NCBI RefSeq assembly: GCF_021568905.1
Contig: NZ_JAKGSB010000001.1
Span: 434,001-498,000, forward strand
DNA: 64,000 nt
Direction: 5' to 3'
Origin: Zavarzinia marina
GTDB taxonomy: Bacteria; Pseudomonadota; Alphaproteobacteria; Zavarziniales; Zavarziniaceae
Position 1 is the first letter of the stretch, and the number at the start of each line of letters is the position of its first letter. Positions 23,338 to 26,178 of this stretch are shown piece after piece. The notes below the pieces were generated by a model. It worked only from the letters and a program-made list of their open reading frames with translations, did not search any database and was not told where the DNA came from. The translations under genes and the position numbers were made by a program.

Positions 23338-23796
23338 ATGGCGGAGATCTCCTTCTATCACTTGGAGGCGCGGCCCCTCGAATGGGCCCTGCCGCGCCTC
23401 CTGAACCGCGTCGTCGAGGCGGGGATGCGCGCGGTCGTCGTCACGGGCGTCGCCGAGCGTCTACCCTTCCTCGATCAGGCGCTCTGGACCTTCGACGATC
23501 AATCCTTCCTGCCTCATGGCCGTGCCCCCGACGATTTCGCCGCTGACGAGCCGATCTGGCTGACCACCGATCCGGCGGAACGCCCGAACGACGCCACCGT
23601 CCTGGTGCTGGTCGACGGCGCCGGCCCGGCGGATTTCACCCTCGACGGCTACGCCCGCTGCCTCGACATGTTCGACGGCAAGGACGACGACGCCCGCGCC
23701 GCCGCCCGCAGCCGCTGGACCGCCTTCAAACAGGCCGGCCACACAGTCACCTATTGGCAGCAGTCCGCCGACGGCCGTTGGGAGAAGAAGGCGTAG
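23338..23796 (+). CDS. holC: DNA polymerase III chi subunit
   Basis: A 152-residue clamp-loader accessory protein that contacts SSB. It starts MAEISFYHLEARPLEWALPRLLNRVVEAGMRAVV and contains LDQALWTFDDQSFLPHG, the characteristic chi pattern. The order pepA-holC is conserved across proteobacteria. The gene ends 41 bases before the LexA-like boxes of the next gene. Confidence 0.92.
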   Translation: MAEISFYHLEARPLEWALPRLLNRVVEAGMRAVVVTGVAERLPFLDQALWTFDDQSFLPHGRAPDDFAADEPIWLTTDPAERPNDATVLVLVDGAGPADFTLDGYARCLDMFDGKDDDARAAARSRWTAFKQAGHTVTYWQQSADGRWEKKA

Positions 23797-23821: not shown

Positions 23822-23836
23822 GAACAAAAGAAGAAT
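23822..23836 (-). promoter_or_regulatory. near-consensus LexA (SOS) box
   Basis: The plus strand reads GAAC-AAAAGAA-GAAT, one base from the alphaproteobacterial LexA direct repeat (GTTC-N7-GTTC, here seen from the other strand). It lies 46 bases upstream of a perfect copy. Spacing and phase suggest cooperative binding, but a chance A-rich match cannot be excluded. Confidence 0.5.
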
Positions 23837-23867
23837 TTCCGCTTGCGTCGCCCGACGACTCGTGAAA

Positions 23868-23882
23868 GAACAAAAAAAGAAC
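23868..23882 (-). promoter_or_regulatory. perfect LexA (SOS) box
   Basis: The plus strand reads GAAC, seven A residues, GAAC: an exact GAAC-N7-GAAC, the reverse complement of the alphaproteobacterial LexA consensus GTTC-N7-GTTC. It ends 23 bases before the ATG of the small membrane protein at 23906, where it would overlap the promoter and allow repression by LexA. Confidence 0.8.
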
Positions 23883-23905
23883 GATTTTGGTGCGGGAGAA
23901 CGGCG

Positions 23906-24169
23906 ATGACGGATGCGGTTTTCGATCGGGCGATGGCGGTTATGGCCTGGGCGTGTCGGCCGGGGCTGCTTCTGTTTCCCCTGCTGCTGATCGCGGAAAT
24001 CGCCGGTCTGGTGCCGATGGAAATGGTCCTGCCCTTCGCCTCCATGGCCCTGATCCACATCGCCGGCCGCCGCCAATGGCTGACCCGCCGCGCCGAACGG
24101 GCAGGCGAGGGGGACTGGGTGGAGATTGCTCCGGTCGCCGTTCCGGCGCGGATCGACGCGCGGCGCTGA
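23906..24169 (+). CDS. small membrane protein under SOS box control (unknown function)
   Basis: An 87-residue protein I do not recognise. It has two adjoining hydrophobic stretches (residues about 19-35 and 38-55), a short basic segment GRRQWLTRRAERAGEGD and an Ala/Arg-rich end. A ribosome site GGGAG lies seven bases before the ATG at 23906. One perfect and one near-perfect LexA box sit 24-84 bases upstream, so expression is probably induced by DNA damage. Known SOS-induced small membrane proteins include the division inhibitor SidA of Caulobacter and the TisB toxin of E. coli; I see no clear sequence match to either. It is convergent with the ABC-F gene, 6 bases away. Confidence 0.65.
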   Translation: MTDAVFDRAMAVMAWACRPGLLLFPLLLIAEIAGLVPMEMVLPFASMALIHIAGRRQWLTRRAERAGEGDWVEIAPVAVPARIDARR

Positions 24170-24175
24170 AGCGGT

Positions 24176-26059
24176 TCAGTCCGCCGCTTCCATCGCCTCC
24201 AATTCCTCGTTGAGGGTCAGCCACTCCAATTCGGCGGCCTCCTGGGCCTTCAGGATCTCGGCGCGCTTCTTGCCCGCCTCGACCATGGCGCCGGCATCGC
24301 CGTAGACCTTCGGGTCCGCCATGGCCGCCTCGAGTTTGGCGAGGTCCTTGGCCAGCCGCTCCATCAGGGTCTCGGCTGCCTTGATCTTCCGGGTCAGGGG
24401 GGCGCGGGCCTCGCGGGCACGGGCAGCTTCGCGGCGCTGTTCCTTGCGGTCGGCGGCCGAGGCGGCGTCGGCGGTCTTGACCGGGCCGTCCTCGAAACTG
24501 CCGGCCAGAACCTGACGGCGGTAATCCTCCATGTCGCCGTCGAAGGCCTTCACCGTGCCGCCGGCGACCAGCCACAGGCGGTCGGCGCAGGCTTCGATCA
24601 GGTGGCGGTCGTGGCTGATCAGGATGACGGCGCCCGGATAATCGTTCACCGCCGCCACCAGGGCTTCGCGGGCCTGGATGTCCAGATGGTTGGTCGGCTC
24701 GTCGAGGATGATCATGTTGGGCGCGTCGACGGCCATCATGGCGAAGAGGAGGCGCGCCTTCTCCCCGCCCGACAATTGGCCGACCGGCGTATCCGCCAGG
24801 GTCGCCCCGAAGCCGAAGGCGCCGAGCCGGCCGCGCACTTCGGTCGGGCTCGCCTTGGGCAGCACCGCCTGCATGTGCTGCACCGGGGTCTCGGTCAGGG
24901 TGAATTCGTCCTGCTGGTGCTGGGCGAAGAAGCCGGGGCGCAGCTTGGGCGCGCGAAAGAATTCGCCGCCGGCGGGCGTAAGCCGTCCCGCGATCAGCTT
25001 GGCGAAGGTCGACTTGCCGTTGCCGTTGGAGCCGAGGAGGGCGATGCGGTCGTCGGGATCGATGCGCAGCGACAGGTTACGCAGCACCGGCGGCCGGTTC
25101 TCATAGGCGACGGCGACGCCGTCCAGGGTGACGATGGGCGGCGACAATTCGTCCTTGCAGGGGAAACGGAACTCGACCCGGCTCTCCCCCGGTAGTTCGG
25201 GCAGGGGTTCCATCCTCTCGATCATCTTGATGCGGGCCTGTGCCTGCTTGGCCTTCGACGCCTTGAAGCGGAAGCGGTCGACGAAACTCTGCAGGTGCTT
25301 CTTGGCGGCGTCCTGCTTCTGGCGCTGGGCTTCCAGATTGGCGAGCTTTTCGGCCCTGGTGCGCATGAAGCGATCGAAGCCGCCGGCATAGAGGGTCAGC
25401 TTGCCCTGATCGAGATGCAGGATATGGCCGACCGCCTTGTTGAGGAGGTCGCGGTCGTGGCTGACCACGATCAGGGTGCGGGGATAGCGCGCCAGGAAGT
25501 CCTCGAGCCACAGCGTGCCTTCGAGGTCGAGATAGTTCGTCGGCTCGTCGAGGAGCAGCAGGTCGGGTTCGGCGAAGAGCACGGCCGCGAGCGCCACGCG
25601 CATGCGCCAGCCGCCGGAAAAACTGCCCATGGGCCGGTCCTGCGCCGCCTCGTCGAAGCCGAGACCGGCGAGGATGCGGCGTGCCCGCGCCGGGCCGGCA
25701 TGGGCGCCGATGGCGTTCAGGCGCTCGTGGATTTCGGCCAGTCTGGCACCGTCCGTCTCGGTCTCGGCGGCCTGCATCAGATGGGCGCGTTCCTTGTCGC
25801 CGTCCAGCACGACCTGGACCGGCGTCTCGTCGCCGCCCGGTGCCTCCTGGGCGACGGTGCCGATGCGCGCCCCCCGGTCCACGGCGATCTCGCCGTCGTC
25901 GGCGTGGATCTGGCCCAGGATCAGGCGCAGCAGGGTGGATTTGCCGGCGCCGTTGTGGCCGACCAGGCCGATGCGATGGCCGTCCGGCACCTGGGCGCCG
26001 GCCCGGTCCAGGATGGTGCGACCCGCGATGCGATAGGTGAGACCGTCGATCCGTAACAT
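24176..26059 (-). CDS. ABC-F family ATPase (YheS/Uup-like)
   Basis: A 627-residue soluble protein with two ABC ATPase domains and no membrane part. The first Walker A is GHNGAGKST, signature FSGGWRMR, Walker B LLLLDEPTNYLD. The second is GSNGNGKST, signature LSGGEKAR, Walker B MIILDEPTNHLD. The linker between the domains is basic (FRFKASKAKQAQARIK). The C-terminus (about residues 530-625) is a charged coiled coil. ABC-F proteins act on the ribosome. The ATG at 26059 (MLRIDGLTYR) is used rather than an ATG 36 bases upstream, because domain 1 starts there. Confidence 0.9.
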   Translation of the reverse strand: MLRIDGLTYRIAGRTILDRAGAQVPDGHRIGLVGHNGAGKSTLLRLILGQIHADDGEIAVDRGARIGTVAQEAPGGDETPVQVVLDGDKERAHLMQAAETETDGARLAEIHERLNAIGAHAGPARARRILAGLGFDEAAQDRPMGSFSGGWRMRVALAAVLFAEPDLLLLDEPTNYLDLEGTLWLEDFLARYPRTLIVVSHDRDLLNKAVGHILHLDQGKLTLYAGGFDRFMRTRAEKLANLEAQRQKQDAAKKHLQSFVDRFRFKASKAKQAQARIKMIERMEPLPELPGESRVEFRFPCKDELSPPIVTLDGVAVAYENRPPVLRNLSLRIDPDDRIALLGSNGNGKSTFAKLIAGRLTPAGGEFFRAPKLRPGFFAQHQQDEFTLTETPVQHMQAVLPKASPTEVRGRLGAFGFGATLADTPVGQLSGGEKARLLFAMMAVDAPNMIILDEPTNHLDIQAREALVAAVNDYPGAVILISHDRHLIEACADRLWLVAGGTVKAFDGDMEDYRRQVLAGSFEDGPVKTADAASAADRKEQRREAARAREARAPLTRKIKAAETLMERLAKDLAKLEAAMADPKVYGDAGAMVEAGKKRAEILKAQEAAELEWLTLNEELEAMEAAD

Positions 26060-26178
26060 GGCGGCGCTAATAGCATGGCGCATGCGGGGGCTCAAAGCGC
26101 CGCAGTTGCGAAGTCGGTGCCGCTCGGCTAAAAGGCCGCCAACTCGTTGTCACCCCTGTTCATGGAATGGAGCCGATC

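What the first reader, a model, noticed from the sequence alone, without database searches (positions are those of the whole stretch)
23822..24169. Small membrane protein preceded by one perfect and one near-perfect LexA box
An 87-residue protein with two hydrophobic segments starts 24 bases after an exact GAAC-N7-GAAC, with a second copy one base off consensus 46 bases further upstream. It has a good ribosome site (GGGAG) and no family I recognise. SOS-controlled small membrane proteins elsewhere stop cell division (SidA in Caulobacter, YneA in Bacillus) or depolarise the membrane (TisB), so this could be a new damage-induced division inhibitor or toxin. It is the strongest candidate here for an undescribed function.
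Basis: partly seen in the sequence, partly recalled or inferred. Interest (0 to 1): 0.75.

Follow-up and report, generated by a model that had tools for sequence, protein, structure and literature searches.

The report
SOS-regulated orphan membrane hairpin in Zavarzinia
A small membrane protein found only in one bacterial family (Zavarzinia and a sister genus) sits behind a conserved on-switch for DNA damage, so it is very probably made when DNA is broken and may pause cell division, but what it does has not been shown.

Summary
An 87-codon gene (23906-24169, +) is preceded by an exact LexA-type site GAAC-N7-GAAC (23868-23882) and a one-off site 46 bp upstream (23822-23836). The bare motif is at chance level in the window, but these two sites are not. 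A LexA matrix built from lexA, recA, imuA and uvrA promoters of this bacterial family ranks them 1st and 2nd of 127,972 positions. The proximal site is kept in all seven genomes of the family that carry the gene, 25 bp downstream of a TTG (-35). The distal site is kept in all six Zavarzinia, always lacking the final C. What lies upstream of the gene changes between genomes; the site and the gene stay together. The reading frame is under purifying selection and is predicted to be a two-helix membrane hairpin. I found no protein family, phage, plasmid or solved structure it belongs to, and no relative outside the family. So LexA control is strongly supported, but function is inferred. My best guess is a SidA-like checkpoint protein acting on the membrane part of the division machinery (about 0.4). 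Rivals are a domesticated holin, an envelope factor and a depolarising toxin.

The parts
23822..23836 (+). Distal LexA-type box GAACAAAAGAAGAAT (one mismatch, last base)
   Evidence: present in all six Zavarzinia genomes at 46-47 bp from the proximal box, never with the final C; rank 2 in the window by LexA matrix; absent in the sister genus
23843..23848 (+). Putative -35 element TTGCGT
   Evidence: TTG exactly 25 bp upstream of the proximal box in all six orthologous promoters scored, including the other genus; uvrA has it at 24 bp; G005 agrees by eye
23866..23871 (+). Putative -10 element AAGAAC, overlapped by the first half of the proximal LexA box
   Evidence: Inferred from the 17-bp spacer to the -35; poor match to TATAAT, no consensus promoter called
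23868..23882 (+). Proximal LexA box GAACAAAAAAAGAAC, exact consensus
   Evidence: Exact in 7 of 7 family genomes that carry the gene; rank 1 of 127,972 positions in the window
23894..23898 (+). Ribosome-binding site GGGAG
   Evidence: Sequence, 7 bases before ATG
23906..24169 (+). 87-aa orphan membrane protein: two-helix hairpin (helices 3-32 and 38-68) plus variable basic C-terminal tail
   Evidence: orthologues G001-G006
23341..23796 (+). Upstream neighbour HolC (DNA polymerase III chi); not part of the unit in relatives
   Evidence: PF04364 E 1.6e-32; 1.2-3 kb of other genes separates it from the small gene in three relatives examined
24176..26068 (-). Convergent ABC-F ATPase, the only neighbour constant in all seven genomes; makes the small gene monocistronic

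Best explanation
A single-gene SOS unit. Supported by sequence: LexA sits on the box that overlaps the promoter and keeps the gene off; when RecA triggers LexA cleavage the gene is transcribed from a promoter whose conserved TTG (-35) lies 25 bp before the box, and is translated from a strong ribosome site. The distal, consistently weaker box just upstream of the -35 probably tightens repression (inferred). The product is an inner-membrane hairpin, both ends probably cytoplasmic (prediction and inference). Inferred, unproven step: it acts as a DNA-damage checkpoint by docking in the membrane against the septal cell-wall synthase (FtsW/FtsI/FtsN), delaying division until repair, as the unrelated SidA does in Caulobacter.
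For: Regulation: conserved boxes and promoter geometry; same motif at lexA, imuA, uvrA in the same genome and at lexA/imuA/recA of relatives. Autonomous unit: upstream neighbours differ between genomes while box plus gene stay together. Protein: purifying selection, about 18 invariant positions including R8, W15, P19, E31, E39 and R55, confident helical hairpin. Checkpoint role: no SulA in any of the seven genomes, so some other SOS division inhibitor is to be expected, and this is the only small membrane protein among the exact AT-rich-spacer LexA sites I examined in G000. SOS-induced division inhibitors in other bacteria are lineage-specific small membrane proteins, and several are thought to meet FtsW in the membrane (PMC4211646, PMC13396833).
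Against: No homology to any known division inhibitor found; two helices and 87 aa instead of one helix and 29 or 71 aa (SidA, DidA). No expression, localisation or phenotype data. The regulon was sampled from exact-consensus sites only, so another inhibitor behind an imperfect box, or a peptide as short as SidA, could be missed. Invariant residues do not cluster significantly on one helix face (p 0.37 and 0.77), so a defined docking face is not shown.
Confidence: 0.4

Rival explanations
1. Domesticated holin-like protein: a two-helix membrane protein of phage origin, put under LexA control, that permeabilises the membrane of heavily damaged cells or serves release of phage-like particles.
For: The sister-genus orthologue matches Pfam PF05449 (Phage_holin_3_7) at E 1.1e-4, 22.6 bits against a cut-off of 25.4, over residues 1-63; weak matches to holin groups phrog_217 and phrog_21780. 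Hairpin with basic tail resembles two-TM holins; SOS control is typical of prophage lysis genes.
Against: Only one of seven members matches and below cut-off; the same profile gives an equal or better score inside an unrelated 854-aa frame, and phrog_217 hits chance frames as well. No relative in viral contigs, phages or plasmids. No endolysin or phage gene next to it in the neighbourhoods examined. Charged residues inside the hairpin are invariant.
Confidence: 0.15
2. SOS-induced envelope or transport accessory protein: binds and modulates another inner-membrane complex during damage, without arresting division.
For: Many SOS genes have no division role; invariant residues suggest a specific partner; lineage restriction fits an accessory factor.
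Against: No partner gene is linked: the constant neighbour is a convergent ABC-F gene, a soluble ribosome factor by family knowledge.
Confidence: 0.27
3. Depolarising SOS toxin working like TisB.
For: SOS control plus small hydrophobic protein; tisB also has a very good LexA box (PMC8145889).
Against: 87 aa against 29 aa; predicted 5' UTR of roughly 30 nt with an open ribosome site leaves no room for tisB-like translational control; no Rfam RNA in the region and no promoter-like site on either strand. Many invariant polar residues are unusual for a peptide acting on lipid alone.
Confidence: 0.1
4. The boxes are chance or not LexA sites.
For: The bare motif is at chance frequency in the window.
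Against: Conservation in all seven genomes, promoter geometry, matrix rank, identity with lexA/imuA/uvrA sites.
Confidence: 0.05

Closest known systems
SidA of Caulobacter crescentus (SOS-induced division inhibitor)
   Same: Alphaproteobacterial LexA control through a GAAC-N7-GAAC (GTTC-N7-GTTC) site; small inner-membrane protein
   Different: 29 aa (PMC4211646) against 87 aa with two predicted helices; no sequence relation found; activity not shown here
DidA of Caulobacter crescentus
   Same: Small damage-associated membrane protein of an alphaproteobacterium
   Different: 71 aa, single helix, induced by DriD and not by LexA (PMC4211646)
YneA / ChiZ / SosA division inhibitors
   Same: SOS-controlled small membrane proteins, thought to reach FtsW in the membrane (PMC13396833)
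   Different: YneA and ChiZ carry an extracellular LysM domain; this protein has none
TisB/istR-1 of E. coli
   Same: LexA-controlled hydrophobic protein with a very good box
   Different: 29 aa, structured 5' UTR and antisense RNA (PMC8145889); no sign of either here
Phage_holin_3_7 (PF05449)
   Same: Small helical membrane protein; sub-threshold match of one orthologue
   Different: Six of seven members do not match; no phage context

Membership tests
LexA (SOS) regulon | Consensus LexA box of the organism in the promoter | tested here: met
   Exact box, rank 1 in the window; same motif at lexA, imuA, uvrA
LexA (SOS) regulon | Box conserved upstream of orthologues | tested here: met
   7 of 7 genomes for the proximal box, 6 of 6 Zavarzinia for the distal
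LexA (SOS) regulon | LexA binding and damage induction | not testable with these tools
   Needs ChIP or footprint and RNA-seq
SidA-type SOS division inhibitor | Small inner-membrane protein under LexA control | tested here: met
   Boxes as above; predicted helical hairpin with two hydrophobic segments
SidA-type SOS division inhibitor | Sequence homology to SidA or DidA | not tested
   No SidA/DidA sequence was fetched; no Pfam, NCBIfam or PHROG model matched the window protein
SidA-type SOS division inhibitor | Blocks division through FtsW/I/N | not testable with these tools
   Experiment needed
YneA/ChiZ type | LysM domain after one transmembrane helix | tested here: not met
   No Pfam match; hairpin of two helices
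SulA | PF03846 match | tested here: not met
   No Pfam hit for the protein; no SulA in the seven genomes
Type I toxin (TisB-like) | Very short toxin (TisB 29 aa) with antisense RNA and translational control in the 5' UTR | tested here: not met
   87 aa, short predicted leader with open GGGAG, no Rfam RNA; antisense RNA itself can only be excluded by RNA-seq
Phage holin superfamily (PF05449) | Score above the family cut-off | tested here: not met
   22.6 bits against 25.4 in one member, none in the other six
Phage holin superfamily (PF05449) | Phage or lysis-cassette context | tested here: not met
   Neighbours are housekeeping genes; no phage or plasmid relative

The most novel reading that the evidence does not exclude
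A new protein family of SOS checkpoint or lysis effectors: a two-helix membrane hairpin, unrelated to SidA, DidA, SulA or YneA, that stops division (or opens the membrane) by a contact not described before, controlled by a conserved strong/weak pair of LexA sites.
Probability: 0.3. Interest if true: 0.7.

Novelty: new member of a known kind. Interest (0 to 1): 0.5.

Why it matters
SOS division inhibitors are not conserved: each lineage seems to have its own small membrane protein, and outside Caulobacter I found none described for Alphaproteobacteria in the papers held here. A conserved LexA-controlled membrane hairpin in a family without SulA is a concrete candidate for how these bacteria delay division, and would help test whether independently evolved SOS inhibitors converge on FtsW.

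Tried and rejected
Wider relatives: 385 genomes of the class gave only weak hits (E 1e-3 to 8e-3) outside the family, without a box nearby; the one in an 85-aa frame lies on the antisense strand of a penicillin-binding-protein-like gene; rejected as chance. Diverged counterpart by synteny: the region beyond the ABC-F stop was inspected in about 26 other alphaproteobacteria; one had an exact box, with a GC-rich spacer, and I saw no clear counterpart (box directly before a short hydrophobic convergent ORF) in any (the script stopped before the last two loci). Fold search: only E above 1, generic helical pairs. Holin reading followed up with genome-wide searches of PF05449 and phrog_217; specificity too poor to support it. 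Helical-face clustering of invariant residues: not significant. First genome-contig scan with the single protein found nothing; the alignment query worked. The longer TTG start at 23843 (108 aa) was rejected: it runs through the promoter and box, and orthologues align from the ATG.

Full report
What is there. The window lies in a 3.95-Mb genome of the genus Zavarzinia (Alphaproteobacteria): congeners of the window genome carry orthologues, and the search for related loci names those records Zavarzinia aquatilis HR-AS and Zavarzinia sp. MAGs. The ORF at 23906-24169 encodes 87 aa. Upstream lie GGGAG at 23894-23898, an exact GAAC-N7-GAAC box at 23868-23882 and a one-off copy at 23822-23836.

Chance. 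The bare motif means little: the window has 37 hits with up to one mismatch against 39 expected, and the genome has 81 exact hits. So I looked at which exact sites are real. Those with AT-rich spacers lie before lexA (two boxes), imuA (NCBIfam ImuA E 2e-13, below that model's cut-off), uvrA, a Cro/C1-type regulator and a few others. In the five family genomes where lexA was found it has GAACCAAAATAGAAC or a one-base variant; five of the six imuA promoters have an exact box directly upstream; recA has a conserved one-off box ending in GTAC in all seven. A matrix from these promoters, not including the gene under study, ranks the proximal box first (27.8 bits, above every training site) and the distal box second (19.4 bits) of 127,972 window positions; the third reaches 13.9.

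Conservation. Every one of the seven genomes held for this family has an orthologue (40-58% identity). All seven have an exact proximal box; all six Zavarzinia have the distal box with 46-47 bp spacing, always with GAACAAAA on the left and always without the last C on the right. A TTG lies exactly 25 bp before the proximal box in every promoter scored, including the other genus, and at 24 bp in uvrA, so the box would cover the -10 region. In Caulobacter about 97% of SOS promoters have a single box (PMC12700426); here lexA itself and this gene have two.

Autonomy. The 3' neighbour, a convergent ABC-F gene, is constant. The 5' side is not: HolC directly in the window; a flavin-monooxygenase-like gene in G001 and G004; a chemoreceptor-like gene in G003; an AlkB-like 2OG oxygenase (PF13532, E 4.6e-58) in G006. 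Promoter and gene stay together as one unit. Names given to the G001, G003 and G004 genes are my reading of their sequence.

Protein. In the gap-free core the true frame has the lowest pN/pS of six frames (0.49). AlphaFold2 on five sequences gives two helices, 3-32 and 38-68, with pLDDT 84-93 in the core and a disordered tail, pTM 0.54. The segment F6-x-R8 ... A14-W15-A16-x(2)-P19 ... E31-x(2)-G34-x(4)-E39 ... R55 is invariant. No Pfam, NCBIfam, PHROG or PADLOC family matches the window protein; no solved structure matches; no phage, plasmid or viral contig encodes it.

Function. Shown by sequence: promoter architecture, conservation, membrane hairpin prediction. Not shown: induction, location, activity. 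I favour a SidA-like checkpoint role because the family has no SulA, because this is the only small membrane protein among the exact AT-rich-spacer sites examined, and because SOS inhibitors elsewhere are small lineage-specific membrane proteins proposed to meet FtsW (PMC4211646, PMC13396833). The main caveat is the sub-threshold holin match of one orthologue, which controls show to be unspecific but which I could not settle without true family members to compare. A TisB-like role is disfavoured by length and leader anatomy.

Verdict. Real, conserved and very probably LexA-controlled (about 0.95); division checkpoint about 0.4. It is a new protein family within a known kind of SOS gene, restricted as far as I could see to one bacterial family.

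Noticed in passing
L056:2509-3153 (G006): In the sister genus the gene directly upstream of the small membrane gene is an AlkB-like DNA/RNA demethylase (PF13532, E 4.6e-58), with the LexA box between the two.
   Followed up: partly
L020:1308 (G000:C9:1161307): Exact LexA-type box GAACAAAACAAGAAC before a Cro/C1-type helix-turn-helix regulator; a possible SOS-linked regulator of unknown role.
   Followed up: partly
L021:~1550 (G000:C9:1178552): Exact box GAACAAAAAGAGAAC next to a gene I read as a radical-SAM repair-like protein (from memory; the N-terminal fragment tested had no Pfam match).
   Followed up: partly
L024 (G000:C10:256509): Exact box GAACGTTATGAGAAC 15 bp before a glyoxalase/bleomycin-resistance-type protein (PF00903).
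   Followed up: partly
L049, L093-L097, L099: recA in the whole family keeps an imperfect LexA box whose right half is GTAC instead of GAAC, and several have a second GAACAAAAGGTGAT-like element upstream resembling the distal box studied here.
   Followed up: partly
G004 (L098/L099, L104/L106, L052): recA, imuA and the ABC-F gene are each split by frame changes in this genome record, more likely assembly errors than real losses.
   Followed up: no
L105:2190 (G006): A second exact box GAACAAAAGAAGAAC about 700 bp beyond the start of the imuA match.
   Followed up: no
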